Source of the DNA: Mycobacterium parmense
Lineage (GTDB): Bacteria; Actinomycetota; Actinomycetes; Mycobacteriales; Mycobacteriaceae
DNA length: 64,000 bases
Direction of reading: 5' to 3'
Assembly (NCBI RefSeq): GCF_010730575.1
Contig: NZ_AP022614.1
Coordinates: forward strand, 5,084,001-5,148,000
Shown here: positions 17,835 through 53,424 of the stretch, piece after piece
Layout of the letters: every line of letters begins with the position of its first letter
How positions within the stretch are numbered: position 1 is the first letter of the stretch
Program-made: the position numbers and the translations under genes
Notes under the pieces: generated by a model
Databases searched by the model: none
Seen by the model: the letters and a program-made list of their open reading frames with translations, nothing else
Told to the model about the DNA's origin: nothing

Positions 17835-18062
17835 TCCGCTTCCAGCCGGGGGGCTGCCAGTTCACGCACTGGCCACCGCCGACTCCACCGGCGAAGTCCG
17901 TCGTCCACCCGTTGCGGCGCGGGAATCAAGATGACCGAAGATAACCGTTCCCGGGCTTTATGGCTTTATCGACGGGCGCGTGTAGCGGGTTAACCATTGT
18001 CGCTCCCCGGCCTGTGGTCGTCGTTGGCGGCCTGCTCGCGATGAGGAACCGACCAGCTGTTT

Positions 18063-18081
18063 ACATTACGCCCAATAATGT
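18063..18081. promoter_or_regulatory. Inverted repeat upstream of the P450 operon
   Basis: ACATTA (18063-18068) and TAATGT (18076-18081) form a perfect inverted repeat with a 7-base spacer, in an unusually AT-rich patch of this GC-rich region. It lies upstream of the P450-transglutaminase pair and is a reasonable operator or promoter element; nothing else is recognisable between 17930 and 18182. Confidence 0.4.
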
Positions 18082-18182
18082 CAAAATTAATACATGCATA
18101 TCTGACTTGTCAACGGGCTCCCAGTGGCGCGCAAAGGCGGTCGCCGCGCAGCTAGCCGCTGCGCCCGCGTTCAGCTCCGGCG

Positions 18183-19224
18183 TCAAGGAAACTTGCGTTC
18201 AGCGCTGTCGGCGAGAAACGCCCCGCTGAGGCGCAAAGCGTGACGCGCCTCGGGCAAGAGTCGAAACAGGGCTTGAAACACGTGAATTTGACCGCGAAAC
18301 ACCTGAAGTTGCACGGACGACCCCGCGGCGAGCATGCGCTCGGCGAGTCGTCGGGAATCGTCGAGCAGCATTTCTCTCCCGCCCACCTGGATCAATGTCG
18401 GCGGCATGCCGGTGAGGTCGGTGGCGAGCACGTTGACGCGGGGGTCGTGCGGATCGGCGTCGCCCACGTAGAGACTCAGCGCCCGCGACGCGGATCGGGC
18501 GGATGCGAAAGGATCGCGGCGCCAGATTTCGCGAGCCGTCGCCAGCTGACACGTCAGATCGATGACGGGGGACATCAGTAGCATGCGGTCAGGCAACGGC
18601 AGGCGATGTGCGAGTGCACCCAACGAGGTCGCGACCGCCAGTTGGCCGCCCGCCGAATCGCCTGTGTCGGCGGCAAGTGAATACTGACCAGTGCGCGGCC
18701 GACTCCTGATCAGTTTTCGATTGCCGTTGACAGCCTGCGATCGCTACCGTGCGGGCTGATGTCGATTCTTCAGAGCCCGCCAACCACCGGTAGGCCCTCA
18801 GTGCGTCGTCAGCAGCCGCCGGATACGGGTAACGCGGAGCCAATCGATAGCGGACCGCGAAGACCGGGCGCAGCGACGCGGCAGACAGTTCGCCCAGCAG
18901 ACCGCGATGGGTTTTGGGAGAGCACATCGAAAATGCGCCGCCGTGAATGTAAAGGATCGGTGGCCCGTCCGGGTTGACGTTCGGTGCGACGACCCAATCT
19001 CCCCTCACTCGATCGCCGGCGAAGACGGTGTCGACCAGCCTTACGCGCAGTCCTGGGCGTGGGCGGGACGCGATGAGCGCCGCCCGAAGCACCCGATCCA
19101 TCACAGCAAGCCCGTACTGGTTGGACGGTAGTGCTTGCGTCAATGGGCGAAGGACCCCGCGTGCGGATGTTGCGATGAGGTAGCTTGTCAGGCTCGGATC
19201 CCAATCCGAGGAAACGGATATCAC
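18183..19224 (-). pseudogene. HSL-type esterase disrupted by a 68-bp mini-element
   Basis: From a GTG at 19224 the N-terminal half reads SSDWDPSLTSYLIATSARGV and contains the oxyanion motif YIHGGAFSM and a strand ending RTVAIAG. The sequence is then broken at 18665-18737. Removing the 68-bp element and one copy of its 5-bp duplication restores AIAGDSAGGQLAVATSLGAL in frame, which is the serine nucleophile elbow, and continues into the C-terminal half with the acid motif LIQVGGREMLLDD and the His in GQIHVFQAL, ending at 18183. The insertion hits exactly the catalytic elbow, so the enzyme is inactive as read. Confidence 0.88.
18665..18732. mobile_element. 68-bp TIR-only mini-element (copy 1)
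   Basis: The left end is TGTCGGCGGCAAGTGAATAC and the right end, read inward, is TGTCAACGGCAATCGAAAAC; over 27 bases the ends match at about 21 positions, leaving only about 13 bases between them. It is flanked by the direct repeat GCCTG (18660-18664 and 18733-18737). A nearly identical 67-bp copy with a different target duplication lies at 51581-51647. TGT...ACA ends with short target duplications suggest mobilisation by an IS21-type transposase. Confidence 0.85.
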
Positions 19225-19515
19225 GATAAGCCAGCCAGCTTTTCGTTGGTGCGGCCCCCTGTAGCATCCCAAAGCCCGCGTATAGCGGATCGAGGTCGCT
19301 GGCGCGGGGCCACGTCGTCTTTGAAGTGGTGGGTATAAGAAGGAAGCAGGCCTTGTAGGAACCACTGTTACTGATCTACCGGCAGCCTTCAAAGCGACGC
19401 GCGCCGTCGTCGCCAGAGCCGCAGAGCTACGCGATCCAGAGCGGGTCGTCCCCCGGTCGAGCTGGCGCAGGAACGTAGGCAACGATGATGCAGCGACGGC
19501 TGTCGAAGTTCTCGA

Positions 19516-19968
19516 TTACCGCCGACCGGCCGGCAGTTGCAAGGTCGCCTCACTGGGCACGCATATGCCCTCCTCGCTGGACACTGCCAGTTCCAGGTCG
19601 ACCAGGCGCATTCCGCGGTCTTGGCGCTTGGCCACCACCCGCCCGGTAAGGGTCGCGGTCTGTCCCGGGTAGATCGACTTGATCATCGATATCTTGCGCC
19701 GGCGCAGGAGCGCGTCGGGGCCCGCCCAGTCGGTGAGGCCCCGGTCGATGAAGCCGTGAAAGAACAGCGTCGACAGGTAGATCGTTCGCTGGCCCTGGCT
19801 GCGTGCGTACTCCGGATCGTGATGGCCCGGGAACCAGTCCCACGTCGCCGCGGCGTTCATGCAGACCCGCTTGTAGGTGATAGGAATCGACACCGGCGTG
19901 ATCTCGTCGCCGACAATGACGTCATCGAAGGTAAGGCCTTTGATGTCTGCAGTGCTGATCTTGGTCAT
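19516..19968 (-). CDS. MaoC-like hot-dog dehydratase subunit
   Basis: From the ATG at 19968 the product is 150 residues with the hot-dog fold pattern of MaoC-type enoyl-CoA hydratases: an N-terminal strand LTFDDVIVGDEITPVSIPIT, the long helix region with DWFPGHHDPEYARSQG, where the His-Asp pair sits at the position of the hydratase active site, and the strands IYPGQTATLTGRVVAKRQD. It is the last gene of a five-gene operon and follows the partner hot-dog protein after 14 bases. The two probably form one heteromeric enzyme that hydrates or dehydrates an acyl-CoA. Confidence 0.82.
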   Translation of the reverse strand: MTKISTADIKGLTFDDVIVGDEITPVSIPITYKRVCMNAAATWDWFPGHHDPEYARSQGQRTIYLSTLFFHGFIDRGLTDWAGPDALLRRRKISMIKSIYPGQTATLTGRVVAKRQDRGMRLVDLELAVSSEEGICVPSEATLQLPAGRR

Positions 19969-19982
19969 GAGCGCCCCCGGGT

Positions 19983-20495
19983 TTACTGGGCTGTGTCGTA
20001 GCGGAACAGGACGTTGGTGTTGCGGGCGATGTTCTCGCCGTGCTGGTCGGTGTAGGTGGTAAGCGATGTGATGAAGACGCCGGTTCCCAGCCGAGTCGTC
20101 TTCTCGTCGGATAGCGAGACGATCTCCTCGACTATCCAAACGTGGTCACCGACTCGGGGTCGGCGCTCCAGCTCGGTGGTGGTGGAGGCGTTGATGATGT
20201 GGTGGCCGGGCAGGGGAACGTTGAGCGCGAAAAGCCCGTCCTCGCGGTGCAGGTGCGCGGGCGCCCATTGCGGGTTCATGCCCAGGGTCATCAGCAGGCC
20301 CGGTGGGCACTCGTCGCCCTCCCAGTACCGTGGGTTGGCGTCCTCAACCAGAGAGCAGTAGTAGAGGATCATCGATCGGTCGATCGGAAACCACGCCTGC
20401 TTTGGCTCGGAGCGACGACCGACCCAGGACCGGCCCTCCTCTAGAGTGCCGAACGCCATCCCGAGCCCGGTGACATCGTTGGTGTGGGAGCTCAC
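19983..20495 (-). CDS. FAS1-like (MaoC N-terminal type) dehydratase subunit
   Basis: From the GTG at 20495, preceded by AGGGAAGGCAACACC, the product is 170 residues. The motif WFPIDRSMILYYCSLVEDAN followed by PRYWEGDECPPGLLMTLG is characteristic of the N-terminal domain of MaoC-like/FAS1-like dehydratases; a second half with GHHIINASTTTELERRPRVG and DHVWIVEEIVSLSDEKTTR forms the hot-dog strands. The start overlaps the stop of the AtuA small protein (GTGA). It is expected to pair with the MaoC-like subunit just downstream, as in split two-subunit enoyl-CoA hydratases of actinobacterial steroid and lipid catabolism. Confidence 0.85.
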   Translation of the reverse strand: MSSHTNDVTGLGMAFGTLEEGRSWVGRRSEPKQAWFPIDRSMILYYCSLVEDANPRYWEGDECPPGLLMTLGMNPQWAPAHLHREDGLFALNVPLPGHHIINASTTTELERRPRVGDHVWIVEEIVSLSDEKTTRLGTGVFITSLTTYTDQHGENIARNTNVLFRYDTAQ

Positions 20496-20827
20496 GGTGT
20501 TGCCTTCCCTTCGATGGCGGGTTCGGGCAGGGGCATGCGGGACAGGATCGAACACATCGACTTGCCGGTCTCGTCGAAGCGCAGTGTTGCGGTTGCGCCG
20601 CCGCCGAGGGCTCCCCGCATGACGATGTTGAACGCATGCAGGCGAGGCAGCGTGTAGATCGTCACGGTTCCGGTGACCAGACCCTTCATGAAGGAGGTGA
20701 TGGCCTCCGGCCGCAGTCCGCGTTGCAGCGCGGCAAAAGCCTCGGCGTCGCGGGCGAGCACCACGACGTTGGAGATGTCACCCTTGTCGCCTGAACGCAC
20801 GAACGCCAACTCGTCAATGGTGGGCAT
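20492..20827 (-). CDS. AtuA-associated small domain protein
   Basis: From the ATG at 20827 this is a 111-residue protein beginning MPTIDELAFVRSGDKGDISN. The RSGDKGD motif is the signature of the small domain that accompanies AtuA proteins, either fused to them or as a separate gene directly downstream. The rest includes LPRLHAFNIVMRGALGGGAT. Its start lies inside the end of the AtuA gene and its stop overlaps the next gene (GTGA), so all are co-translated. In acyclic terpene-utilising bacteria AtuA-type proteins take part in isoprenoid acyl-CoA breakdown, but their exact reaction is not settled. Confidence 0.85.
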   Translation of the reverse strand: MPTIDELAFVRSGDKGDISNVVVLARDAEAFAALQRGLRPEAITSFMKGLVTGTVTIYTLPRLHAFNIVMRGALGGGATATLRFDETGKSMCSILSRMPLPEPAIEGKATP

Positions 20828-22205
20828 CGAGCATCTCCTTGGCGGCCTGGACACGGACGTGCTGTGGGACGAACTCACGCGGTACCAGGGTCGGCCACAG
20901 CGCTATCACCTTGCGCACCGCCAGCGGCGCGCCGAAGGCGGTACCCACCGGACCGGCCGTCGCTGGCAGCAGCATCGCGCGGCGGGCGACCTCGGCCTCG
21001 CTGCGGGTGCGGCACTTGGCCACCATCCGGAGCTCGACCTCGTTGGGCTGGGCGTCGGGTGCCGGTCGTGGGGCCACCGGGCCGGCCAGCGCGTCCCAAC
21101 CGACACGGTCGAAACGCATCTCCTGCGGAATGACACCCAGGTACTTGATGCGGCCGCGCACTAGCCTCTCGCAGAAGTCGGCCTTCTCCAGAGCATCGGG
21201 CCAGGGGATCATCGTGCGCCCCTCGGCGAGGTAGCCGTCCTCGTAGCCGATCTGCACCTTGAGCGTGTCCGGCCGTCGGCGGCCGGTCATGCCCGTGAGC
21301 TGCACGCGGTCGGGGCCGAGTTCTTTGACCTCGACACCGCCCATGTCGACGACACCGTCGGGCAGCAAATAGCAGAACGGGTCGTGCACTTCGTAAAGCA
21401 AATGCTCTTTGATGGTCCACTCGTTGAGCACCCCACCCGAGCCCGGCACCTTACTGATCACAGCGGTGCCGTCAGCCGACATCTCGGCCATCGGGAACCC
21501 GAGCCGCCACGGATCACGCGACAGCCGCCACTGCGAGGACATGCCGCCGGTCGCGATGCCCGCACACTCCAGTACATGACCGACGGTAAGCGCGGCGCCG
21601 ATCAGGTCGGGATTACGCTCAAATATCCACCCGAAGTGGCGCATGAGCGGCCCGCAATAAAGCGCAGAGTCGGCAAGCCTGCCGCCGATCACGACATCGG
21701 CGTCGCCGTCAAGTGCGTCAATGATCCCGTCGGAGCCGGTGTACGCCGAGACAGCGACGATCCGGTCGGCGATGCGGTCGATGTCTTCTTCGCCGGACTC
21801 AAGGTGCGCGAATTGCCAACCCGAATCCCTGATTTCGGCGATTCTCCCCGTCAAGTCGTCGCCCTCAATGGTTCCGATGCGGGTGTCGGGATATCCGGCG
21901 TCACAGGCCACTCGCGCAGCGGCCAGTGCGGCGGCACCCGGGTTCGCTCCGCCCCCATTGGTCACGATGCCGACGTCGTTACGGCGGGCAGCGGGCAGCG
22001 CCTGACGCAGAATGGGTTCGACATCGGGCACGTACCCTTTACCCGGGTCACGCATCTTGGCACGGGTAAGGAGCGCAACGGTCAACTCGGCCAGCAGGTC
22101 GAAGCAGGCAAACTCGACACCGCCCTGCTCAATGAGTTCCACCGCGGGATCCACCATGTCACCCCAATAGCCGGCACCAGCACCGATCCGCACGCTGGCA
22201 CTCAT
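20814..22205 (-). CDS. AtuA-family (DUF1446) protein
   Basis: From the ATG at 22205 the product is 463 residues. It starts SASVRIGAGAGYWGDMVDPA and includes FDLLAELTVALL, VTNGGGANPGAAALAAARVA, VVIGGRLADSALYCGPLMRH and DPFCYLLPDGVVDMGGVEVK, the conserved blocks of the DUF1446/AtuA family. AtuA takes its name from acyclic terpene (citronellol/geraniol) utilisation clusters. Here it is followed by the separate small AtuA domain and two hot-dog subunits, which supports a role in a branched or isoprenoid acyl-CoA pathway. The start overlaps the stop of the small ORF upstream (ATGA). Biochemical function is not established for the family. Confidence 0.9.
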   Translation of the reverse strand: MSASVRIGAGAGYWGDMVDPAVELIEQGGVEFACFDLLAELTVALLTRAKMRDPGKGYVPDVEPILRQALPAARRNDVGIVTNGGGANPGAAALAAARVACDAGYPDTRIGTIEGDDLTGRIAEIRDSGWQFAHLESGEEDIDRIADRIVAVSAYTGSDGIIDALDGDADVVIGGRLADSALYCGPLMRHFGWIFERNPDLIGAALTVGHVLECAGIATGGMSSQWRLSRDPWRLGFPMAEMSADGTAVISKVPGSGGVLNEWTIKEHLLYEVHDPFCYLLPDGVVDMGGVEVKELGPDRVQLTGMTGRRRPDTLKVQIGYEDGYLAEGRTMIPWPDALEKADFCERLVRGRIKYLGVIPQEMRFDRVGWDALAGPVAPRPAPDAQPNEVELRMVAKCRTRSEAEVARRAMLLPATAGPVGTAFGAPLAVRKVIALWPTLVPREFVPQHVRVQAAKEMLDAHH

Positions 22206-22375
22206 GCGCACTCCTGCGCCGCCTCGGCGCTTGCCGCCGCGATGTCGGCACTAGGCGGCGGCGCGCTTGGCGGTATCCCGCCGACTGCCGGATCGACAAA
22301 GGGCACGAATGCGGCGCGCCCGGCCAGCCGTCCTTTGCCGGTGACCCCCGCAGCAATCAGCATCGTTCCGGGCAT
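22202..22375 (-). CDS. 57-residue protein of unknown function heading the AtuA operon
   Basis: The ATG at 22375 is preceded by a strong ribosome-binding site (AGAGAGGAGGAAAACACG), the stop overlaps the AtuA start by four bases, and a palindromic operator-like motif lies 56 bases upstream, so it is very probably translated. The protein begins MPGTMLIAAGVTGKGRLAGR and has a Pro/Ala-rich tail. I do not recognise a family. It could be a small leader or accessory peptide, or the remainder of a longer gene whose 3' part was deleted when the AtuA operon was joined on. Confidence 0.55.
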   Translation of the reverse strand: MPGTMLIAAGVTGKGRLAGRAAFVPFVDPAVGGIPPSAPPPSADIAAASAEAAQECA

Positions 22376-22430
22376 CGTGTTTTCCTCCTCTCTGTCCCCG
22401 GCCGTCGACCGCAAAGCTCTTGGCCGCGGG

Positions 22431-22451
22431 CCTGTTAATTGGCGTTAGCGT
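22431..22451. promoter_or_regulatory. Palindromic operator-like motif, copy 1 (AtuA operon)
   Basis: The sequence is CC-TGTTAAT-TGGC-GTTAGCGT. Its second half is identical to that of the copy at 35046-35066, and the layout A(C/T)G(T/C)TA(A/T)C-N4-complement is shared by four sites in the window. It lies 56 bases upstream of the first gene of the AtuA operon. Confidence 0.5.
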
Positions 22452-22682
22452 ACGCTGTCTTGACACCGCTCGGCAGTGACCCGAGGCCCGGCGTCCGGGT
22501 CAAGCGAATCGAGCTTCCCGAAGTTGTCGACGTTGCGCCACGCCAGAGGGGCGAGATTGCCTTTCTGCTCATGGGCTGGGGATTAGAACGACTCCGGCTG
22601 CTGCCGAGAAATCACGTATCCGGCGTGGCGTAAAGCCGGTCACTGGAAGTCGACGCACTACCGACACGCGGACTTGCGCGTC

Positions 22683-22703
22683 AATGTTAACGGCCGATAA
22701 CGT
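22683..22703. promoter_or_regulatory. Palindromic operator-like motif, copy 2 (acyl-CoA dehydrogenase operon)
   Basis: The sequence is AA-TGTTAAC-GGCC-GATAACGT. It is identical to the copy at 32149-32169 except for the four spacer bases. It lies about 130 bases before the acyl-CoA dehydrogenase start. Confidence 0.55.
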
Positions 22704-22831
22704 ATCACCGGGCGATTACGCTGCTGTCGAGCGGTGACGGAAGCTTCCCTCGAATTCCTCGGTGTGTCGCCTGAAGTTTGTCGTGGCCGGTGCAAACCCG
22801 GACCTGCGGGTGATTCAAGGGGTTGAGCGGT

Positions 22832-23986
22832 ATGGAGATATCAGAGAGCCAGGAACGGCGGGATCTGCGGGCGGCGGTTGCGGCCATCGGGAAGTCGTAC
22901 GGCCACGATTACTACCTGACCAAATCCCTGGGGGGCGAGAAGTCTACGGAACTGTGGCAGGAGGTAGGTAAGCAAGGTTTTCTCGGGGTGAATATTGCCG
23001 AGGAGTACGGCGGTGGCGGTGGGGGTATCTACGAACTGCATGCCGTGGGAGAGGAGTTGGCGGCGGCGGGGTGCCCGTTGTTGATGACGGTGGTGTCGCC
23101 GGCCATTTGTGGCACCATCATCCAAGCGTTCGGAACCGACGAGCAGAAACGGCGTTGGCTTCCGGGCATTGCGAGCGGCGAGATCATAATGTCGTTTGCG
23201 ATCACCGAGCCCGACGCGGGCTCAAACTCGCACAACATAGCGACGACCGCCAAGCGGGACGGCGCCGACTGGGTTCTGCGTGGCACCAAGTACTACATCT
23301 CGGGAGTGGACGAGGCGCAAGCCATCTTGGTGGTCACCCGAACGGGTACTGACGAGCGTGGGCGCGGCCGGCTGTCGCTGATGGTGGTTCCCACGGACGC
23401 TGCCGGCCTGCAGAAGACTCTGATTCCCGTGCAAGCCGTGACACCGGAGAAACAGTTCACCCTGTTCTTCGACGATGTACGTGTTCCCGGTGACAACTTG
23501 ATCGGCGCTCGGGACGAGGGACTGCGGCAGGTATTCGTTGGTCTGAATCCGGAACGGATAATGGGGGCGGCGCTGGGCAATGGGATCGGCCGGTACGCGT
23601 TAAACAAGGCATGTACCTACGCCCGGGAGCGCAGGGTGTGGGACACCCCTATAGGGGCACATCAGGGAGTCGCTCATCCGCTGGCGCACGCCAAAATTCA
23701 GGTTGAACTCGCACGCTTGATGACCCAACGGGCGGCCGCCTTACACGATGCCGGCGAGGCAGGGGCCGGCGAGGCGGCGAATATGGCCAAGTACGCGGCA
23801 GCTGAAGCCGGAATCCTTGCGCTGGACCAAGCGATTCAGACGCATGGCGGCAACGGTCTGGCTACGGAGTACGGGTTGGCGACGTTGTGGGGACCGGCGC
23901 GGTTGATGCGGACGGCACCGATCAGCCGGGAGATGATCCTCAATTATGTTGCGCAGCATAGTCTCGCGCTTCCACGGTCATACTGA
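22832..23986 (+). CDS. Acyl-CoA dehydrogenase
   Basis: From the ATG at 22832 the product is 384 residues. Motifs include the glycine-rich segment IAEEYGGGGGGIYELHAVGE, the FAD/substrate motif SFAITEPDAGSNSHNIATTA (about 126-145), the core strand region with FFDDVRVPGDNLIG, and the C-terminal IQTHGGNGLATEYGLATLWG with a Glu in APISREMILNY at the usual catalytic position. It should desaturate an acyl-CoA. It is the first gene of an operon with the thiolase-like and DUF35 genes and carries a palindromic operator-like motif upstream. AAGGGG lies before the start. Confidence 0.93.
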   Translation: MEISESQERRDLRAAVAAIGKSYGHDYYLTKSLGGEKSTELWQEVGKQGFLGVNIAEEYGGGGGGIYELHAVGEELAAAGCPLLMTVVSPAICGTIIQAFGTDEQKRRWLPGIASGEIIMSFAITEPDAGSNSHNIATTAKRDGADWVLRGTKYYISGVDEAQAILVVTRTGTDERGRGRLSLMVVPTDAAGLQKTLIPVQAVTPEKQFTLFFDDVRVPGDNLIGARDEGLRQVFVGLNPERIMGAALGNGIGRYALNKACTYARERRVWDTPIGAHQGVAHPLAHAKIQVELARLMTQRAAALHDAGEAGAGEAANMAKYAAAEAGILALDQAIQTHGGNGLATEYGLATLWGPARLMRTAPISREMILNYVAQHSLALPRSY

Positions 23987-24026
23987 ACGTCGACTAGGTT
24001 TGGGTGGCTGCTTCCATGAGGTCAAC

Positions 24027-25214
24027 GTGAGAACTTGGGCACTTGCCAGCGAGCCGGCTATCGCCGCAGTAGAAGAACTACCGCCAGGAAAGTACGAAGG
24101 CCACGACGGCGCGGGCATGCAGGAGTTGGTGCTTCGTCGGTTTCTGCAGAGCCATTCACTTGGTCCCCGCGATGTGGACGGCCTGCTGGTTTGCCCGTCC
24201 GGCATGGCCAGCGGTGCGGGTGCCGACATCTTCGTCCACGAGCGCCTCAATGACGTGTTGGGCATCCGGCCGCGCTTTTGTGAGACTGTCAACGTCGGTG
24301 GGGCGACCTACACGATCATGCTGTCGCGGGCTGCACTTGCAATCAGCGCCGGCCTTGCAAACGCGGTGCTCTGTATCGGTGCGGGGAAATTCCCCAAGGT
24401 GGGGCGGGGAGGCGGCGCCAACGCAATGGCGCGCATGATCAGCCACCCGGACTTTGAGTACCCATACGGCAGCTTCATCCCAGCCCTTTACGCCTTAGCC
24501 GCCACGCGGCATATGGCCGAACGCGGAACGAGCCGCGATGCTCTTGCCGCCGTGGCGGTCTCGAGCCGCGAGTGGGCGTTACGGCATCCAGATGCTTTGA
24601 TGCGCAACGCGGGTCCGCTCACCGTCGAGATGGTTCTGGCTTCACGACCTATCGCGTGGCCGTTCAATTTGCTGGACTGCTCAGTACCGTGTGAAGGTGG
24701 CGCCGTGTTCCTAGTGGCCCATGGTGACCGCGCGCGGGAAATCACCGACCAACCGGCCTATGTATTGGGCTTCGGTGAACACCACGATCACGGCAACATC
24801 ACCCACACCAGCGACTTCGCAACAATGGGTGCCAGCGTGTCAGCGCGTGCCGCGTTCGAAATGGCCGATCTTTCGCCTTCGGACGTGCAGGTGGCCGAAC
24901 TGTACGATGCCTTCACGATCAACCCGATACTGCTGTTGGAGGAAACGGGGCTGGTGGCGGCAGCTAAAGGTGGCCACTTCTTCCTGGATGGGCGGGGGGC
25001 GCCCGGCGGTGACCTTCCGGTGAACACCTACGGGGGTCTGCTGTCATTCGGACACACCGGCGACGCGTCGGGAATGTCGATGCTGATCGAAGCTGCGCGC
25101 CAAGTGATGGGGAAGGCTGCGGATCGTCAAGTGTCTGCAGAAATAGCATTGGTACACACTTACGGCGGCATGATGGCAGACCATTCGACCGTACTCTTGG
25201 GGAGGACGCCGTGA
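24027..25214 (+). CDS. Thiolase-like (SCP-x/Ltp type) protein, probable acyl-CoA cleavage subunit
   Basis: I place the start at the GTG at 24027 (GAGG six bases before it), giving 395 residues. The thiolase fold is visible as VNVGGATYTIMLSRAALAIS (about 88-107), VAELYDAFTINPILLLEETG, and the C-terminal NTYGGLLSFGHTGDASGMSM and VHTYGGMMADHSTVLLG. The usual nucleophilic Cys is not present at the GGATYT motif. Ltp-type thiolase-like proteins that pair with a DUF35 protein include Ltp2-ChsH2, a retro-aldolase in cholesterol side-chain breakdown, so an aldolase rather than a thiolase reaction is plausible. The stop overlaps the DUF35 start by four bases, which supports a complex. Confidence 0.85.
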   Translation: MRTWALASEPAIAAVEELPPGKYEGHDGAGMQELVLRRFLQSHSLGPRDVDGLLVCPSGMASGAGADIFVHERLNDVLGIRPRFCETVNVGGATYTIMLSRAALAISAGLANAVLCIGAGKFPKVGRGGGANAMARMISHPDFEYPYGSFIPALYALAATRHMAERGTSRDALAAVAVSSREWALRHPDALMRNAGPLTVEMVLASRPIAWPFNLLDCSVPCEGGAVFLVAHGDRAREITDQPAYVLGFGEHHDHGNITHTSDFATMGASVSARAAFEMADLSPSDVQVAELYDAFTINPILLLEETGLVAAAKGGHFFLDGRGAPGGDLPVNTYGGLLSFGHTGDASGMSMLIEAARQVMGKAADRQVSAEIALVHTYGGMMADHSTVLLGRTP

Positions 25215-25615
25215 CAACTGCTCCCATGCCCACCGTGACTGACAGCACGGCCGTGTACTGGCAGCAGGCAGCTGTCGGGCGGTTTGTGCTCCCGAAATGT
25301 CGGGAGTGCAAGCGATTCCATCATCATCCCCGCCCTTGGTGCCCATACTGCTGGGCTGCGGATCTGGATTGGCAAGAACCTTCGGGAAAAGCGACGATCG
25401 TCACCTACACCGTCGTCCGTCAGGCCCCGTCGCCAGCTTTCACCGCTCCTTACGTCTTGGCGATAGTGGAGCTGGAAGAAGGACCTCGAATGATGACCAA
25501 CGTGATCGAATGCAACGTCGATGAAGTGCGGGTCGGTATGGCTGTCGAGGTGGTCTTCGAATCACGAGGCAACCTGGCACTTCCGCAGTTCCGACGGGTC
25601 ACGTCAACTGCGTGA
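25211..25615 (+). CDS. DUF35/OB-fold zinc-ribbon partner protein
   Basis: The 134-residue product has an N-terminal helix, a rubredoxin-like zinc ribbon with two CxxC pairs (LPKCRECKRFHHHPRPWCPY, then CW), and a C-terminal OB fold with GKATIVTYTVVRQAPSPAF and YVLAIVELEEGPRMMTN. DUF35 proteins bind acyl-CoA and form complexes with thiolase-like partners. The gene overlaps the thiolase-like gene by four bases, so the two are expected to act together. The sequence after its stop is an IS256-type remnant that has cut the operon. Confidence 0.92.
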   Translation: MTTAPMPTVTDSTAVYWQQAAVGRFVLPKCRECKRFHHHPRPWCPYCWAADLDWQEPSGKATIVTYTVVRQAPSPAFTAPYVLAIVELEEGPRMMTNVIECNVDEVRVGMAVEVVFESRGNLALPQFRRVTSTA

Positions 25616-25633
25616 CGAGCCGACGCGAAAACT

Positions 25634-26430
25634 CACTTATCCAGCACCGATTACCTGTATTTGTGGGTGGATGGCATCCACCTCAAGGTGCGCCTTGAGG
25701 TGGAGAAACTCTGTTTGCTGGTAATGATCGGGGTCCGTGCTGATGGCCGCATGGAGCTCGTCGGGCTGGCTGACGGCTTCCGGGGATCGACTGAGTTCTG
25801 GGCTGATTTGCTGCGCGATTGCCGCCGCCGCGCCATGACCGCAGCGGTGCTCGCGGTCGGCGACGGCGCCCTGGGCTTCTGCAAGGCGTGCGGGAGGTGT
25901 TCCCGGATATTCGAGAGTAGCGCTGCTGGTGGCATAAGCAGGCCAATATTCTTGCCGCACTGCCGAAATCGGTGCACCCAGGGTGCAGTCGCGGCGATGA
26001 AGGAGATCTACAACGCCGAGGATATCGACAAAGCCCAGCTCGCGATCAAAGCGTTCGAGATCGACTACGGCGCCAAATACCCCAAAGCGGTCGCCCAAGA
26101 TCGTCGACGACGCCGAGGTGTTTTTGGAGTTCTACCGGTATCCCGCCGAGCATTGGATCCACCAATCGCACCACAAATCCGATCGAAAGTACCTTTGCGA
26201 CAGTACGTTTGAGGACCAAAGTCACCAAAGGGCCGGGCTCCCGCGCGGCCTGGCTGGCGATGGCCTACAAGCTAATCGAGGCCGCCCAGGCCCGCTGGCG
26301 CGCGGTCAACGCACCACACTTGGTCGCCCTCGTCCGTGCCAGCGCCGTCTTCCACAAGGGCAAGCCGCTCGAACGGCCTATCGACATCACACCCGAACCG
26401 TCGGCAGCTGAGCCTCGAACCGTCGGATCA
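25634..26430 (+). pseudogene. IS256-type transposase remnant (copy 1)
   Basis: The fragment starts at TDYLYLWVDGIHLKVRLEVE and continues through several frames to RASAVFHKGKPLERPIDITP. It lacks the N-terminal third and the terminal end seen in the copies at 41.9 kb and 57.1 kb. It shares with them the same frame breaks after GALGFCKA and near the HPGC/RCTQG segment, so the three copies descend from one damaged ancestor. It separates the thiolase-like/DUF35 operon from the ligase gene. Positions 26431-26605 hold nothing recognisable. Confidence 0.85.
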
Positions 26431-43429: not shown

Positions 43430-45230
43430 AAGCAAGCCCCGAGGACGTTGCGGGAACTGCGTAATTCGTTGGGCTCCCGCGCAACTTAGCCCGAAGGCTG
43501 CGATGGCAGGAGGCGTGTACCAGGTGGGTCTCGTCCAACCGGGCCAGCCGCCCGTGGTGGGTGAGATGCTCGGCGGCGATGGCTCGCTTGACAACTCCTA
43601 ACCACCACCGTTCCCATTCGGAGGGCGACTGCGGGGGTTGATCGACGGTCAACAAATGATCGCCACACAGCGGGCACCGTCCGTCCTGCTTGGCGAGCAG
43701 GCGCAGGTTGTAGCTGTCCAGCGCGGGTTTGACCTTGCGCCGTCGTTCGGCCCAGTAGCTGGCCAATTCCGGGGCGTCGGGAGACGCCCGGCCCGCGACT
43801 AGCGTGTGTCGGACGATGTGAGTCCAGGAGAATTTGACCAGACACGCGATGTTTTCACGGCGGTCATCCAACGGCCGTTCGGGATCGCCGAACACCCACT
43901 GATCGTTCCTGAACTTGTTGAACCGACCCCAGTGGCGGCGTGCGATCCACTTTTTCGGCTTCTTCGGATGCGGTCGGCGCGCCCGCCCGGAGGTGAGCCG
44001 CCACATATAGTGGTCCAGCGAGCTGAAAACCTTGCTGGACACCGCACCTCGATAGTAGGCGGACCATCCCCGGATAATCGGGTTCATCCGGGCGATCACC
44101 GCCCTGGCGTTGGAGCCGCGCAGCCTGCGCATCTCCTCGGCCAACCGTTTGCGGATACGCTCGATCGCCTCCGGGCTCGGCTTGATCAACAACTTGCCCG
44201 GCCGTCTACCGTGGCGGTAGCAGCGGATGTTGAATCCGAGGAAGCTGAATCCCTCTTCGAGGTGGACGATGCGCGTCTTATCCTCGTTGAAGACCAGACC
44301 CCTCGGAGCCAGCCACCGGGCAAGCTGCGCCTTGACGTGTTCGGCCTGCTCACGTGAATGGCAGCAGGCGACCATATCGTCGGCATATCTCACCAGAACC
44401 GGGTTGCCCGCTATCGCCGCGCCGGCGTAAACACCGGTCGAACTGCGGTAACGAACTCCCGCGGCCTCCTCCAGGCCATGCAGTGCCACGTTCATCAGCA
44501 ACGGGCTGATCACCCCGCCCTGCGGAGAACCCTCCTCGGTCGGCGCGAACCCGCCGTTCTCGATCACCCCGGCTTTCAGCCACTTTCGGATCATTTCCTT
44601 GGCCGGGAACGACCCCAGCTTGTCGAGTAGCCGAGGATGGTCGATTCTGTCGAACGCGGCCGACAAATCGGCGTCCAGAATCCATGCCCGTTGGGCTCGT
44701 GGCCCTTTGAGCGTGAGGAAAAGGGACTGGATCGCATCGGCACAGCTACGGCCCGGGCGAAACCCGTAGGAACGGGCCTCGAACCGAGCCTCCCACTCGG
44801 GCTCCAGCGCGTTGCGTACCCGCGCCTGATGACAGCGGTCCATCACCACGGGGATACCGAGCGGACGCTGATTTCCGTTGGCCTTCGGAATATACACACG
44901 CCGAACCGGCAAGGGCTCCCACGACGACCGCGAATCATGCACTCGCACCGCAATATTCGCTCTCGCCTCGGGCGACAGGGCAACCTCCCCATCGATCCCG
45001 GCCGTTCGACGCCCAGCATTGCGCTGAGTCACCTGTCGCACACTGACCAACGTGTTCGACCAGGAACCCAGCATCAGTTTCTGCAGCGACCGGACCGAGG
45101 CCCAGTCCTGCTCCCGCGTCGCCTTGAAGATCCTGCGCCGCAACCTCGCTACGTTTTCCTCATGGACACGCCAATCCACGACGGTCCAATCGAAAACGCC
45201 CTCCGGTCCGTTCACCTCTACGGTGTCCAA
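43428..45230 (-). CDS. ltrA: Group II intron reverse transcriptase/maturase with HNH domain
   Basis: The 600-residue protein starts at a TTG (45230) with GGAAGGG upstream. In order it has an RVT-N-like region (LQKLMLGSWSNTLVSVRQVT), reverse transcriptase motifs including VYIPKANGNQRPLGIPVVMD, AWILDADLSAAFDRIDHPRL, GSPQGGVISPLLMN and the catalytic LVRYADDMVACC, the maturase X domain (ARMNPIIRGWSAYYRGAVSS) and a C-terminal HNH endonuclease (CPLCGDHLL, then LDETHLVHASCHR). It binds the intron RNA, assists splicing and makes cDNA at the target. No frameshift is visible. The domain set resembles chloroplast-like (CL) group II proteins. Confidence 0.95.
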   Translation of the reverse strand: MDTVEVNGPEGVFDWTVVDWRVHEENVARLRRRIFKATREQDWASVRSLQKLMLGSWSNTLVSVRQVTQRNAGRRTAGIDGEVALSPEARANIAVRVHDSRSSWEPLPVRRVYIPKANGNQRPLGIPVVMDRCHQARVRNALEPEWEARFEARSYGFRPGRSCADAIQSLFLTLKGPRAQRAWILDADLSAAFDRIDHPRLLDKLGSFPAKEMIRKWLKAGVIENGGFAPTEEGSPQGGVISPLLMNVALHGLEEAAGVRYRSSTGVYAGAAIAGNPVLVRYADDMVACCHSREQAEHVKAQLARWLAPRGLVFNEDKTRIVHLEEGFSFLGFNIRCYRHGRRPGKLLIKPSPEAIERIRKRLAEEMRRLRGSNARAVIARMNPIIRGWSAYYRGAVSSKVFSSLDHYMWRLTSGRARRPHPKKPKKWIARRHWGRFNKFRNDQWVFGDPERPLDDRRENIACLVKFSWTHIVRHTLVAGRASPDAPELASYWAERRRKVKPALDSYNLRLLAKQDGRCPLCGDHLLTVDQPPQSPSEWERWWLGVVKRAIAAEHLTHHGRLARLDETHLVHASCHRSLRAKLRGSPTNYAVPATSSGLA

Positions 45231-45927
45231 CTTGCCCTTCCGGTTCGCAAGGCCCTCGGTCTCGGTATTTCAAAGGCTCACCTGCCCACGTCAGCGCCCT
45301 TTCGAGCCCAGCCACCACGCTGGTATCCGACCGGTTCCCCATGATCGCCGCCCAGGAGGAGCGGCGGCACCACGACCACAGGTCCCGCTGCCTTTCGGCC
45401 ATCGGCATTCGCTTCTTGAGCATCCTGTTCCCGCCGAGGGATTCCGCCCCTCTCACGATCGGCCTACCGGCCCGAAGGCCGGACCCGACGGGGTTTCCAC
45501 GTTCCGCGCATACGAGATACGGCCGGGGAGGGCGCCCTCTATACCCCGAGACCAGCGGTGTTCGCACGACCGGCCTGTGGCCTCCGGTCGCCGCTTGCCG
45601 CCACTGCCAGCGGCCGGGTCCTATCACCCGGGTTCTCAACCCGTCTTCCCGGGCTTCAAATAACGAGGCGTCATCAAGGGTTCATTCGCATTCGCCCGTC
45701 CGGCCTTCCCTCGCCCGGTCGTTCCCCCAGACGGAACGGGGGCCCTTGGGCTTCTTCCCTGAGCTTCGCACGCCCACGGGCAGGACCCGTCGACGCACGT
45801 CAGGGCGGGGATCGGTCACGAACACCAACCGAGAACTACGCGACCGGCATCGCCGACCTCCACTCCACGAGCTCACTCACATGCGCGACATCGCGTCGCA
45901 CCCACAGACCTCCGATCTTGTTAACAG

Positions 45928-47172
45928 TCAAGCGGCGGCTCGTGTGGGGTGCGTCGGGGGTGGTCGGTATGCCTTGATTGGGTCGTAGGTTTGGCTGGTT
46001 TGCAGGCAGTGGTAGAGCTGGCCGAGCATGCGGTTGTAGAGGTGGCGCAGGGCTGCGGGGTGGCGGTCGCCGTGGTCGCGGCGTGTCAGGTAGTGAGCGC
46101 GGGTGGGTCCTTCGCAGCCGGCCGCGATGAACGCCCAGACGAATCCGACGGCGGCAAGTCGGTTGTTCTTCACGTGCCGGTGAGTGATGCGGATGCTGGG
46201 CCCAGAGGCTTTGGTGACGGGCGCCGACCCGGCGAACGCCTTCAATGCTCGGGCGTCGGCGAATCGTGTTCGGTCGTCGCCGATTTCGGCGAGCAGGCGG
46301 GCACCGGTAAGGTCGCCGACCCCCACAAATGAGGTGATGATCCTGTGGTCGGCGTGCTGGGCAAAGGTGGCGGCGGTGGCCTCGCCCAGCCGGTCGACGT
46401 TGGCGCACTCAGCGTCGAGGGTGGCCAGCAATGCGACTGCTTGGATACCGAAGGCGTCTTCGACCGGGGCGGGGTGTCGCAGCTGCGGCAGCCGCAGCTG
46501 CTGGTGGATTGTCGCCGCGAGCGTGGTCAGGCCGCGTTGGCGTCCGGCGCGGCGCAGGGCGGCGGTGATCTGCGGCTTTGACAGCCGCGCCGCCTTGGCC
46601 GGGGTGGCAGCGATGGCGAGCACCGCACGAGCTTCGGGTGCGGTGATTCCGCCGGGACGGTCGGCGAAGGCGTGCAGGAAACCCGGGAAATATTCCCGCA
46701 GCAGCGACCGCAGTTCGTTGCCGGCCCGGTTACGCCGCCAGGTGGCGTCCTGGTGGGCACGGGCCAGCACGGTGATCGATTGCGCCAGTTCGGTGTCGGC
46801 GGGTAACCGACGATGCTGGTCGATGTCGGTACGCAGGATGTTGGCCAGCGTGACCGCATCGCCGTGGTCAGACTTCTTGCCCGACATCGACGTCCGTTCC
46901 CGATAGCGGGCCACCGACATCGGGTTGATCGGGTAGATCGGTCGACCGCTGGCCCGCAACACGGCGACCAGCAACCCGCGCGGGGTCTCGATCGCGACCG
47001 GGATCGGATCCTCAGGGTCGTCGTCGGCATCGGCCAGCATGGCGGTCAGTTCGGCGAATCCGGCGACCGACTCGGGGATGCGCCGTCTGGCGACCAGCCG
47101 ACCGTCGGCATCCACCAGCGCGACGTCATGATGATCCTGGGCCCAGTCGATCCCACACGTGACCATGGACAA
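45928..47172 (-). CDS. IS110-family transposase
   Basis: The 414-residue protein begins MSMVTCGIDWAQDHHDVALV, where the Asp of the DEDD (RuvC-like) site sits, and has the block SMSGKKSDHGDAVTLANILR, a helical linker, and the C-terminal Tnp-20 domain with SFVGVGDLTGARLLAEIGDD and the serine region KAFAGSAPVTKASG. IS110 enzymes act with a bridge RNA encoded in the element. The frame is intact, so the element may be functional. The group II intron lies 27 bases beyond the stop, on the same strand. Confidence 0.9.
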   Translation of the reverse strand: MSMVTCGIDWAQDHHDVALVDADGRLVARRRIPESVAGFAELTAMLADADDDPEDPIPVAIETPRGLLVAVLRASGRPIYPINPMSVARYRERTSMSGKKSDHGDAVTLANILRTDIDQHRRLPADTELAQSITVLARAHQDATWRRNRAGNELRSLLREYFPGFLHAFADRPGGITAPEARAVLAIAATPAKAARLSKPQITAALRRAGRQRGLTTLAATIHQQLRLPQLRHPAPVEDAFGIQAVALLATLDAECANVDRLGEATAATFAQHADHRIITSFVGVGDLTGARLLAEIGDDRTRFADARALKAFAGSAPVTKASGPSIRITHRHVKNNRLAAVGFVWAFIAAGCEGPTRAHYLTRRDHGDRHPAALRHLYNRMLGQLYHCLQTSQTYDPIKAYRPPPTHPTRAAA

Positions 47173-47498
47173 ATTTACCTCCTTGGTTGTCGAAATGTGT
47201 TGGGTGCGTGACCCTTTGTGAGAACGCGCGGCGCCCTAATAGCAAGGCTCTGATGGCCTGACCTCCGATTGAGCCGTTCGCGACCCCAGCAACCCGCACG
47301 ACCCCCAGTCTTTGTCAGAGCTCAACGGCTCCCCGTCGATGAGGTGTCGATCGTGCAGGCGGGCTCGAACCACGTTCCCCACCCCAACCCCTTCCGAGGA
47401 GCAGCCGGTCACGACACGCCGACCTCGCCGTTCTCCCGGCAGGTCTAGCCGACCCCGGTATCGGTCAGGCGTTCCGTCGACACTCGCTGGCCGACCGC
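47173..47498 (-). other. Non-coding region upstream of the IS110 transposase
   Basis: These 326 bases have no supported gene. In IS110-group elements the stretch between the left end and the transposase start encodes the bridge RNA, so part of this region, next to the start codon at 47172, is the place to look for it. The outer end of the element could not be fixed. Confidence 0.35.
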
Positions 47499-47539
47499 TC
47501 ACTCGGAAGGTCGCAGAGCAGCCGGCGTTCCCGCCTGTG

Positions 47540-47867
47540 GAAGGGGGTCTAGCCCCGAGTTCTGATCAGGAATCGTCCAGTGCCCTACAAAGCTATTAGG
47601 TTCCTGATCATTGCTCCACCGCAGCGCCGTCGGGCGGGTATCACGCTGTCTGGCCAGGCGGTCAAATTCGAGGACCAGGTCCTCGCCGGTGATGCCGCGC
47701 GCCACCCGACCGTCGACGCATTTGCGGGTGTGTTCGTCGATGATCGAGACGATCTTTGATCTGGCGGCGGTCAGTGGTGCCATCGAAATGGAAGTCAACA
47801 GCCACACCCGCTTCAGGCGCATCTGCGTACCCCGGGCATGGCGCTTTCTGCGCCCGCGTCTCCCCAA
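47540..47867 (-). pseudogene. IS3-type transposase (OrfB) fragment
   Basis: On the minus strand two frames give part of an integrase core: GVAVDFHFDGTTDRR (first catalytic Asp), then SKIVSIIDEHTRKCVDGRVA and RGITGEDLVLEFDRLARQRD. The usual second motif (DNGPEF) is degraded to SNDQEPNSF. The fragment has neither end of the element. Confidence 0.75.
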
Positions 47868-47911
47868 GCGAGCGAGCGGGACATTTGACTTGTAGCACCA
47901 CGTCTACACCC

Positions 47912-47926
47912 GATACTATCGGTATC
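47912..47926. promoter_or_regulatory. GATACTATC-type palindrome before the metal-dependent hydrolase
   Basis: GATAC-TATCG-GTATC is an inverted repeat 34 bases before the hydrolase start. It matches the motif before the esterase at 10628 (GATACTATCTGTAT) at 13 of 14 bases. Confidence 0.55.
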
Positions 47927-47959
47927 CGAAACTGGATGTTCGAGGAAGGGCAGCCTGTC

Positions 47960-48850
47960 ATGGTCGACGGAGACATAGGACAAGGGGCAGTGACCACTGC
48001 AAGTGCGGCAAGTGTGGGGTCTCGGTATCCGAGAACCCGGCGGATACGTTTCCCCTTTGGCGAGGGCAGCAAGTATTTCTTCGATGACGACATCATCTTC
48101 AGCCACCTGTGGGCGAACTTGTCGGGGTCGTTCCCGCCGGGGGAGGAGTTGTTCATTCGGTCGGTGCGCCGGTTTGCCGATGAGATCGCCGATCCTGGGT
48201 TGAAGAAGCGGGTGGCCGGGTTTATCGGTCAGGAATCGGTGCATGGCCAGCAGCATCGGGCGCTCAATGACAAGCTCGTTGACATGGGGTATCCGATTGG
48301 GTGGTGGGATTCCGAAAAGTTTGTTGATTGGGTGAAACGCATCGAGGAGGTGCTGCCGGCCCGGATTCCGCTGGCGGTGACAGCAGCCGCAGAACACTTC
48401 ACCGCGATACTTGCTGAGCGGCTGCTCGGCGATGAGGACTTCCGGGCGATCCCGGGTGATGCGGAGGTGTGGAATCTCCTGAAGTGGCATGCGCTGGAGG
48501 AACTTGAGCACAAGTCGGTTGCCTTTGACGTATTCCGCTCGGTGGGGGGTACCGAGCGGGTGCGTCGACGTGTGATGGCGGTAATGATCCCCCTTCTGCT
48601 CCTCCTCATGAGTGGCACGCTGGCGTATTCGGTGGCGCGGGATCCCGAAGCGTGCCGTCAGCCAGTGCGACTGGTGCGTGAGACCTATCGGGTCTACCGC
48701 GGTCCGATATTTCGGGGTTTGATCCCAGAGCTCAGGCAATACTTGCGACCGGGATTTCATCCCGACGACATCGACACCAACGCGTTGCTCGAGCAATGGC
48801 AGGAGGAACTCTTCGGCACCAAGGGGGCCCTGGTCGGCTACCTGAAGTGA
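47960..48850 (+). CDS. Predicted metal-dependent hydrolase (PF10118-like)
   Basis: From the ATG at 47960, with GGAAGGG upstream (an ATG at 47936 is possible), the product is 296 residues. Repeated Glu/His motifs point to a di-metal helical-bundle fold: GFIGQESVHGQQHRALND, VTAAAEHFTAILAERLL and KWHALEELEHKSVAFDVFRS. A hydrophobic helix (MAVMIPLLLLLMSGTLAYSV) follows. The family is annotated as metal-dependent hydrolase, but true activity is not known. It is followed after 46 bases by a flavin monooxygenase in the same direction. A near-identical 5' fragment is found at 61.0-61.4 kb. Confidence 0.85.
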   Translation: MVDGDIGQGAVTTASAASVGSRYPRTRRIRFPFGEGSKYFFDDDIIFSHLWANLSGSFPPGEELFIRSVRRFADEIADPGLKKRVAGFIGQESVHGQQHRALNDKLVDMGYPIGWWDSEKFVDWVKRIEEVLPARIPLAVTAAAEHFTAILAERLLGDEDFRAIPGDAEVWNLLKWHALEELEHKSVAFDVFRSVGGTERVRRRVMAVMIPLLLLLMSGTLAYSVARDPEACRQPVRLVRETYRVYRGPIFRGLIPELRQYLRPGFHPDDIDTNALLEQWQEELFGTKGALVGYLK

Positions 48851-48896
48851 ACCGAATTTCACCGAGACCGTCGCCAAGAAGGGAGCAAGCAGTTTT

Positions 48897-50462: not shown

Positions 50463-50466
50463 TCCA

Positions 50467-50850: not shown

Positions 50851-51200
50851 TTCTCGGGCGCGCTTCGCTCTCACCGTGGTGATCGAAAATTCCGCGAGCC
50901 AGTTGCGGTTCCGAACGGGGCCTGCGCTGGGTTCAGCGTCCAGGCGGCCGACGGTTCATGCTGGAAGGTGTTTCGGTTGACCCCGGTTGCACTATGTTGC
51001 CTGTGAGCCCGCAAATTAGCCTGAGGGTGGAGAGCCCCCCATCCACGGGGACCGTGGAATGTTGCCGTCGAGCACGAGTGTCAGAATTCTGTTTCATCCC
51101 GCTCTCCTGTCAACGGCGACACGGGGTCAGTTTTCAGACGACGCCGACATCTCCCCGGAACACGCCCCTTTGTCAATCCTGTTGGGAGGCGGTGAGTTCG
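50851..51200. other. Non-coding region before the second IS110 copy
   Basis: These 350 bases hold no gene. The part next to the IS110 transposase start would carry the bridge RNA region of that element, and it is interrupted by a 42-bp mini-element at 51107-51148. Confidence 0.4.
51107..51148. mobile_element. 42-bp TIR-only mini-element
   Basis: The left end is TGTCAACGGCGACACGGGGT and the right end, read inward, is TGTCGGCGTCGTCTGAAAAC. It has the same TGTC...GACA outline and the AAAACTGA core as the 67-68 bp elements but is shorter. It is flanked by the direct repeat TCTCC (51102-51106 and 51149-51153). Confidence 0.7.
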
Positions 51201-52080
51201 ATGGATGTGGTGCACCCGCGGTGCGCGGGAATCGATTGCTCGAAGAAAGACGCGAAGGTCTGTGTGCGGATTCAGGGCCATGGACGCAGAGGAGCGTCGT
51301 CGACAGTGACGACATGGGGTGCCATGACATCACAGATCCTGGCGTTGCGTGAGCATCTTATCGCGCAGAAGGTCACGTGTGTGGTGATCGAGTCCACCAG
51401 CGACTACTGGAAACCGTTCTACTACCTGCTCGACGATGAGCTGAACATGATGCTGATCAATGCGTCGCGGGTGCGCAATGTGCCCGGCCGCAAGACCGAT
51501 GTGTCTGATGCTGCGTGGCTGGCCGATCTCGGGGCTCACGGGCTGGTGACGGCGTCGTTGGTGCCGCCGCCGCCGATTCGTGTCGGCGGCAAGTGAATAC
51601 TGACCAGTGCTTGCCGACTCCTGATCAGTTTTCGATTGCCGTTGACAATTCGCGCGCTGCGGGATCTGACCCACGCACGCACGCACATCACCCGGGAATG
51701 CTCGCGCGAGGTAATGCGGTTGGAGAAGCTGCTCGAAGACGCCGGGATCAAACTCACCTCGGTGGCCACCGACATCACCGGAGTGTCCGGACGAGCGATG
51801 CTCGAGGCGCTGATCGCCGGCCAGAACGATCCAGCCATGATTGCCGATCTGGCCAAGCGGACGCTGCGCCGCAAGATCCCGGCGTTGACCGAGGCGTTGA
51901 TCGGCCGGTTCAGTGAGCATCACGCGTTTATGTCCCGGTTGTTCCTTGACCGCATCGATGCTCACACCGCCGATATCGGTCGCCTCGATGAGCGCATCGA
52001 GGAAGCGATGGCGCCCTTTCGCCTCACCCGGGAACTGCTGATGAGCATTCCGGGATTCTCCGGCAAGACTGCCGAGGTGT
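51201..52080 (+). pseudogene. IS110-family transposase broken by a mini-element and truncated
   Basis: The ATG at 51201 has GGGAGG upstream and begins MDVVHPRCAGIDCSKKDAKV. The DEDD domain continues with VVIESTSDYWKPFYYLLDDE and NVPGRKTDVSDAAWLADLGA to PPPPI. A 67-bp mini-element (51581-51647) then brings an in-frame TGA; removing it with one 5-bp repeat restores PPIRALRDLTHARTHIT in frame. The rest runs through TSVATDITGVSGRAMLEALI to IPGFSGKTAEV, where the IS3 element at 52081 cuts off the C-terminal domain. Confidence 0.88.
51581..51647. mobile_element. 67-bp TIR-only mini-element (copy 2)
   Basis: It differs from the 68-bp copy at 18665-18732 at only about three positions, all in the central spacer. 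Ends are TGTCGGCGGCAAGTGAATAC and, inward from the right, TGTCAACGGCAATCGAAAAC. The flanking direct repeat is ATTCG (51576-51580 and 51648-51652), unlike that of the other copy, which shows independent insertion. Confidence 0.87.
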
Positions 52081-52133
52081 GAATCGCCCTGGAAATCCCG
52101 GAGGCTCCTGACCTTGGAAACGAGGATGCAGGT

Positions 52134-52478: not shown

Positions 52479-52549
52479 TCGACTTCATCGACACCCACCG
52501 TGGGGAATTCGGGGTCGAGCCCATCTGCACCGTCCTGCGCACCGCAGGG

Positions 52550-53392: not shown

Positions 53393-53424
53393 CCCGAGCC
53401 TCCGACAGAACCAGGGCGATTCAT

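What the first reader, a model, noticed from the sequence alone, without database searches (positions are those of the whole stretch)
18660..18737. 68-bp TIR-only mini-element inserted exactly in an esterase active-site codon stretch
The insert has TGTC...GACA ends that match each other over about 27 bases, almost no internal sequence, and the 5-bp direct repeat GCCTG. Removing it and one repeat restores the nucleophile motif GDSAGG in frame (73 bases out, frame shift corrected). This is a miniature, non-autonomous mobile element, and its ends look like those of IS21-type elements. Elements this small that still transpose are uncommon in mycobacteria as far as I know.
Basis: partly seen in the sequence, partly recalled or inferred. 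Interest (0 to 1): 0.85.

Follow-up and report, generated by a model that had tools for sequence, protein, structure and literature searches.

The report
Tiny IS21-derived inverted-repeat insert
A 68-base piece of DNA interrupting an esterase gene is the two outermost ends of a much larger jumping gene stuck together; similar pieces sit at many unrelated places in actinobacteria, and at least one such piece seems to have jumped on its own although it lacks half of the sites its enzyme is thought to need.

Summary
Window 18665-18732 is a 68-bp element with imperfect inverted ends (20 of 26 bases) between perfect 5-bp repeats GCCTG, inside an alpha/beta-hydrolase gene. A second copy (67 bp, repeat ATTCG, same ends, different centre) interrupts an IS110-type transposase at 51581-51647. 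A 42-bp remnant of a related element (repeat TCTCC) lies at 51108-51149. An uninterrupted esterase paralogue in the same genome lacks exactly 73 bp at this point.
The element is the outermost ~35 bp of each end of an IS21-family insertion sequence (istA/istB, about 2.2 kb); genes and inner repeats L2/R2 are gone. I listed 28 distinct sites of such elements, 63-81 bp, in several IS21 subgroups and genera; 19 of 28 have perfect 5-7-bp flanking repeats. One 67-bp version stands, with 1-2 differences, at three unrelated sites with different repeats, which suggests that it moves. IstA of IS5376 needs two repeats per end in vitro (PMC10122671), so movement is unexpected. In-place collapse of full copies is the main rival; the 42-bp remnant supports it, and for the 18665 copy it is not excluded. 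The host holds no close IstA. Filed as an IS21-derived minimal MITE; mobility of this copy is inferred.

The parts
18665..18732 (+). mini-element 1, 68 bp, IS21-type left end to right end
18660..18664 (.). direct repeat GCCTG, left copy
18733..18737 (.). direct repeat GCCTG, right copy
18665..18699 (+). part matching the outermost 35 bp of full IS21 left ends (outer repeat L1)
   Evidence: 91% to M. paragordonae IS21; up to 97% in other genomes
18698..18732 (-). part matching the outermost 35 bp of full IS21 right ends (outer repeat R1)
   Evidence: 89% to M. paragordonae IS21; 94% in G119
18738..19482 (-). upstream piece of the interrupted alpha/beta-hydrolase (esterase-like) reading frame, with leader; true start not determined
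   Evidence: PF07859 profile 1-66
18186..18623 (-). downstream piece of the interrupted alpha/beta-hydrolase reading frame
   Evidence: PF07859 profile 96-209
51581..51647 (+). mini-element 2, 67 bp, same ends as element 1, different centre
51576..51580 (.). direct repeat ATTCG, left copy
51648..51652 (.). direct repeat ATTCG, right copy
50958..52082 (+). IS110-type transposase reading frames interrupted by element 2 (pieces 50958-51596 and 51636-52082)
   Evidence: ORFs; first piece: PF01548 and NF033542 below its cut-off; second piece: no Pfam match
51108..51149 (-). 42-bp remnant of an IS21 element of another subgroup: about 32 bp of left end and 10 bp of right end
51103..51107 (.). direct repeat TCTCC, left copy of the 42-bp remnant
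51150..51154 (.). direct repeat TCTCC, right copy of the 42-bp remnant

Best explanation
The insert is a minimal IS21-derived MITE. An IS21-family element lost everything between the outer repeat of its left end (L1) and of its right end (R1): istA, istB and the inner repeats L2 and R2. The breakpoints lie close to the start of L2 and the end of R2, joined with 0 to 7 shared letters. The resulting element of about 68 bp keeps both tips and was moved in trans by IstA/IstB of a related full-length element, making a 5-bp target duplication in the esterase gene; the helper was later lost from this genome. Shown: derivation from IS21 ends, the target-type repeats, the uninterrupted paralogous site, the lack of a close helper now, recurrence in several subgroups. 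Inferred: that the 18665 copy itself arrived as a 68-bp element, and the trans mobilisation.
For: Ends: the left 35 and right 35 bases match the outermost 35 bases of both ends of a 2183-bp M. paragordonae istA/istB element (91%, 89%), which has inner repeats (25-bp spacing at the left end) that the insert lacks; its IstA passes the NCBIfam IS21 model. The 54 outer end bases differ at 1 position from a full element with its own 5-bp repeat (L083). 28 distinct sites, 63-81 bp (median 68), 19 of 28 with perfect 5-7-bp flanking repeats. Uninterrupted sites: esterase paralogue and the flank of the 65-bp M. vulneris element in G270. Mobility as a mini: a 67-bp version at three unrelated sites in three genomes (1, 1 and 2 differences; no flank homology within 300 bp at E 0.01; repeats CGGGCCG, GTCCCC, TCTTC). 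No close IstA in the host: the two matches are 28% and 32% identical.
Against: Purified IstA of IS5376 needs two complete repeats per end for integration (PMC10122671, section read); the minis keep one. In the subgroup of the three-site 67-bp version larger elements have a 5-bp CGACG at one or the other breakpoint, so the same deletion could have happened more than once, and its odd letter (A in ACTAACCCC) also occurs in full elements, in slightly different surroundings. Elements 1 and 2 have the same ends but different centres, which two separate collapses explain as well. 9 of 28 sites lack a perfect repeat of 5 or more. The 42-bp remnant shows that deletion after insertion does happen.
Confidence: 0.6

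Rival explanations
1. Scar of a full-length insertion. A complete IS21 element inserted (which explains the 5-bp repeat) and its inside was then deleted in place, leaving 35+33 bp. Possible routes: slippage at the short shared letters near L2 and R2, helped by the inverted repeats, or a break with resection up to transposase-covered outer repeats and end joining. The remainder cannot move.
For: IstA of IS5376 needs two repeats per end in vitro (PMC10122671). By eye on the list, most centre types stand at one site only; the exceptions are the 67-bp version, the M. marinum and G262 pair (same centre, several end differences) and, but for one base, the Kribbella and Mycobacteriaceae MAG pair. Elements 1 and 2 share all 54 end bases but not the centre. 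The 42-bp remnant at 51108 keeps only about 10 bp of one end yet has a perfect TCTCC repeat, so it most likely shrank after insertion. Other shortened elements exist: 1472 and 1981 bp with repeats, 446 bp without.
Against: A near-identical 67-bp element at three unrelated sites with three different repeats. Among the end pairs that I examined only one product (446 bp) lies between 82 and 1300 bp, whereas plain deletions should spread in size; but the searches favoured small products. No site with a full-length copy in one genome and a mini in another was seen in the three flank searches.
Confidence: 0.36
2. A structured RNA, regulatory hairpin or ordinary part of the gene.
For: It folds well as a hairpin (DNA parameters).
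Against: No Rfam match up to E 1; paralogous gene copies lack it; flanking direct repeats and unrelated sites elsewhere.
Confidence: 0.02

Closest known systems
IS21 family insertion sequences (istA/istB), e.g. IS21, IS5376
   Same: TGTC...GACA tips, outer repeats, 5-bp target repeat (5 bp in all of ten in vitro insertions sequenced, PMC10122671); a full actinobacterial member shares 53 of 54 outer end bases
   Different: no istA, no istB, no inner repeats L2/R2; 68 bp instead of about 2.2 kb
Bacterial MITEs derived from IS families (e.g. MITEPye1 of Paracoccus yeei, IS1182-type; passages seen, PMC11578231)
   Same: no coding capacity, terminal inverted repeats, flanking direct repeats, ends shared with a full IS, low copy number
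   Different: parent is IS21; consists of the two outer repeats alone; several origins in different subgroups
Tn3-derived inverted-repeat miniature elements (TIMEs; search listing only, PMC4133298)
   Same: miniature derivatives of a larger transposon with its inverted repeats, as the title says
   Different: other family; I did not compare sequence or size

Membership tests
IS21 family (as a derivative) | ends equal to those of an istA/istB element | tested here: met
   35+35 bp match to the M. paragordonae istA/istB element; IstA passes NF033546
IS21 family (as a derivative) | target duplication of about 5 bp | tested here: met
   GCCTG and ATTCG; 19 of 28 sites with 5-7 bp, 9 without
IS21 family (as an autonomous member) | carries istA and istB | tested here: not met
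   68 bp only
IS21 family (as an autonomous member) | at least two repeats per end (L1/L2, R1/R2) | tested here: not met
   only the outer repeat of each end is left
MITE | short, non-coding, terminal inverted repeats, flanking direct repeats | tested here: met
MITE | copies at several sites that spread as the short form | tested here: inconclusive
   suggested for the related 67-bp version at three sites; the 18665 centre was seen at one site only
MITE | mobilised in trans by the parent's transposase | not testable with these tools
   needs an assay; no close helper in this genome

The most novel reading that the evidence does not exclude
Elements of 63-81 bp with a single transposase repeat at each end are real, repeatedly born IS21 transposition substrates in actinobacteria. 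IstA/IstB would then accept ends without L2 and R2 in the cell, perhaps by pairing a mini with a second mini or with the ends of a full element, against the two-repeat rule found in vitro; their near-palindromic centres would serve in turn as landing sites for IS30-family elements.
Probability: 0.4. Interest if true: 0.7.

Novelty: new variant of a known kind. Interest (0 to 1): 0.52.

Why it matters
If such 68-bp elements move, the two-repeat requirement of the IS21 transposase, known to me from one purified system, is not general, and the smallest workable substrate of this AAA+-assisted transposition (a relative of Mu and Tn7) is far smaller than thought. If they do not move, a recurrent collapse of IS21 copies to nearly the same size needs a mechanism. 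Either way these remnants interrupt genes in nontuberculous mycobacteria and travel on shared DNA, and the plasmid records whose full-length matches are listed carry no annotated feature under them.

Tried and rejected
Phage collection (BLAST) and viral contigs (pattern): no match. Rfam: none. E. coli genomes with the istA/istB DNA: 52 records, none covering 80% of the query; the 15 listed are a 12% stretch in istB of ISKpn7 on plasmids; not followed. Two first patterns were mis-spaced and found nothing; corrected. Cutting at the inner repeats as if they were element ends was considered by reading the sequences: it would leave about 25-27 bp of the left end, but 30-41 bp are left, so I dropped it. 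The letters GTGAATTCTG as a marker of a mini-only lineage failed: larger elements carry them too. No orthologous site with a full-length copy in one genome and a mini in another was seen. Left out of the count of 28: the 42-bp remnant; a 67-bp element in G392 with ends of two subgroups and no repeat (L150); a decayed 64-bp one in G091 (L201); a partial match in G160 (L183); six elements with an IS30 copy in the centre. Kept in the count although weak: G047 C24 (14 of 26 inverted bases, no repeat). Copies of one site in several genomes were counted once. Many weaker or partial matches were not fetched. Literature: searches of the open library listed no IS21-derived MITE by title and start of abstract (passages of PMC3281130, PMC3189936 and PMC11578231 seen; not every paper found was listed); most subscription journals and ISfinder are not covered.

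Full report
WHAT IS THERE. Window 18665-18732 is 68 bp, flanked by GCCTG on both sides. Its ends are imperfect inverted repeats (20 of the first 26 bases) and the strand folds as one hairpin, z -4.35 against 200 shuffles. It lies inside a gene read on the - strand whose two pieces match the alpha/beta-hydrolase profile PF07859 at positions 1-66 and 96-209. The same genome holds an uninterrupted paralogue at genome positions 5213469-5213894 within an intact 281-aa ORF containing GDSAGG; the window sequence aligns to it at 83% and 87% on the two sides and 73 bp (68+5) have no counterpart.

TWO MORE IN THE WINDOW. A 67-bp copy at 51581-51647 with repeat ATTCG interrupts an IS110-type transposase. 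The two copies are identical except in the centre (GCGG against TTG). A scan of the window for TGTC...GACA pairs of 30-130 bp with inverted ends and a 5-bp repeat found these two and a third, 42 bp at 51108-51149 with repeat TCTCC, and nothing in any of 20 windows shuffled in 200-base blocks. The third keeps about 32 bp of a left end and 10 bp of a right end of another IS21 subgroup.

PARENT. On a M. paragordonae plasmid a 2183-bp element with istA and istB, flanked by AGTGG repeats, starts with 35 bp that are 91% identical to the left half and ends with 35 bp that are 89% identical to the right half of the insert. Its IstA passes the curated IS21 model. Its ends hold inner repeats further in (25-bp spacing at the left end), which the insert lacks. 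In 396 genomes of the genus, 60 gave a match to the 68 bp; the stronger partial matches fall at 1-35 or 34-68, i.e. at ends of larger elements, while some weak ones lie elsewhere (only two candidates per genome were scored there). Of the end pairs that I fetched, ten span 2181-2190 bp (the M. paragordonae one included) and one 2218 bp; by the flanks printed all eleven have direct repeats of 5 bp or more. The 54 outer end bases of the two window copies differ at 1 position from the element in G119 (L083). The host itself has no close IstA: the two matches are 28% and 32% identical.

RECURRENCE. A loose pattern that allowed 54-84 bp found 14 stretches in the GTDB genome collection, all 65-70 bp: the 18665 site in 4, the 51581 site in 6, and 4 new sites in Pseudonocardia, Kribbella, a Mycobacteriaceae MAG and Mycolicibacterium vulneris, each new site with a perfect 5-bp repeat. 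The M. chubuense plasmid copy was found by BLAST. A covariance model of 11 distinct copies and BLAST searches with other copies added more, including IS21 subgroups with quite different ends (TGTCGGCGTCGCCTGAAAACT, TGTCGGCTCCGGTTGAA). In 32 chosen genomes (150 candidates scored in each, 17 with a match) no mini occurred at two places of one genome with the same centre, apart from matches of one place on both strands. In all I list 28 distinct sites, 63-81 bp, median 68; 19 of 28 have a perfect flanking repeat of 5-7 bp, 9 do not (rows left out are named in Tried and rejected). The size range is partly a product of mini-shaped queries. The end pairs that I fetched gave, besides full elements, 446, 1472 and 1981 bp as shortened elements, 3278 and 8691 bp as longer ones, several single ends without a partner, and elements with an IS30 copy in the centre.

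ORIGIN. For 8 of the 11 copies of the first subgroup (the two window copies included, their identity to each other set aside) one of 13 larger elements is strictly closer in the 54 end bases than any other mini; 1 is a tie and 2 are closer to another mini. With the other subgroups this means several separate origins. The left match to larger elements runs over 30-41 bases and the right match over 33-40; the two overlap by 0-7 letters. In the subgroup of the 67-bp version the left and right matches to larger elements share CGACG.

DO THEY MOVE? For: the 67-bp version of the M. crocinum plasmid (G004) is found with 1 difference in G043 and 1 in G262, in flanks without homology to one another, with repeats CGGGCCG, GTCCCC and TCTTC (300 bp each side at E 0.01; a 1.5-kb comparison of two of them gave only short weak matches, best E 0.002 over 38 bp). 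[quoted passage not shown] its structure, made with right ends, has subunits on both R1 and R2 (passages and two sections). The 42-bp remnant with an intact TCTCC repeat can hardly have moved in that form, so deletion after insertion happens. I saw no site with a full copy in one genome and a mini in another. The natural uninterrupted site of the 65-bp M. vulneris element in G270 shows insertion but not the form that inserted. I put 0.6 on movement as a mini, 0.36 on collapse in place, for the 18665 copy.

SPREAD. The stretches around the window copies are 99.9-100% identical to contigs of M. scrofulaceum, M. nebraskense, M. gordonae, M. helveticum, M. parascrofulaceum and Mycobacterium sp. 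WUMAC-067 (the last two gave only the 51581 site). In the 396-genome search the 18665 copy is in 6 and the 51581 copy in 8 genomes, each time with the same flanks. So these two copies have travelled with the surrounding DNA, not by recent transposition. Cross-contamination among some of those assemblies is possible and was not tested; G000, G367 and G230 (1, 3 and 3 contigs) carry both copies on contig C1.

IS30 IN THE CENTRE. Six elements of 1343-1391 bp with mini-type ends (L126, L210-L213, and L228 of the host genome) hold an IS30-family frame in the centre of the mini; the M. avium plasmid one passes NF033563, the others by similarity of their longest frames (39-92% identity in pairs). They lie in either orientation and in minis of several subgroups. 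Only 2 of the 6 (L211, L213) have a perfect flanking repeat. IS30 is known to use nearly palindromic hot spots (passages of PMC9333248). This is a side finding, but it suggests that minis stay long enough to be hit.

STATUS. An IS21-derived minimal MITE or scar: a new variant of a known kind. Six searches of an open-access library (39, 40, 77, 119, 123, 131) listed no report of such an element; that is a limited check.

Noticed in passing
window 51108-51149: 42-bp remnant of an IS21 element of another subgroup with perfect TCTCC repeats, 430 bp from the second mini: evidence of deletion after insertion.
   Followed up: yes
L210, L211, L212, L126, L213; own genome L228 (5192635-5194024): IS30-family elements of about 1.3 kb sit in the centre of IS21 minis, in both orientations and in minis of different subgroups; L229 and L230 show the left half of the same arrangement.
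   Followed up: partly
L200 409-475 and 499-568 (G043): Two minis of different IS21 subgroups 23 bp apart, each with its own repeat (GTCCCC, GGCGG).
   Followed up: partly
window, about 17885-25807 and 44492-57280: Stretches 99.9-100% identical to contigs of six named nontuberculous mycobacteria: shared mobile region, or partly contamination among assemblies.
   Followed up: partly
G000 5213200-5214200 (L095): Intact 281-aa paralogue of the interrupted esterase about 110 kb away in the same genome.
   Followed up: yes
G000 5080544-5289458: Further ends and remnants of IS21 elements of another subgroup lie near the window in the host genome (six places with E below 1e-4, one of them the 42-bp remnant).
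   Followed up: partly
L086 (G096), 8691 bp: An 8.7-kb stretch between IS21-type ends with perfect ACGGC repeats; may be an IS21 element with extra DNA or later insertions.
   Followed up: no
L150 2589-2655 (G392): 67-bp inverted-repeat element whose two ends look like two different IS21 subgroups, without a flanking repeat.
   Followed up: no
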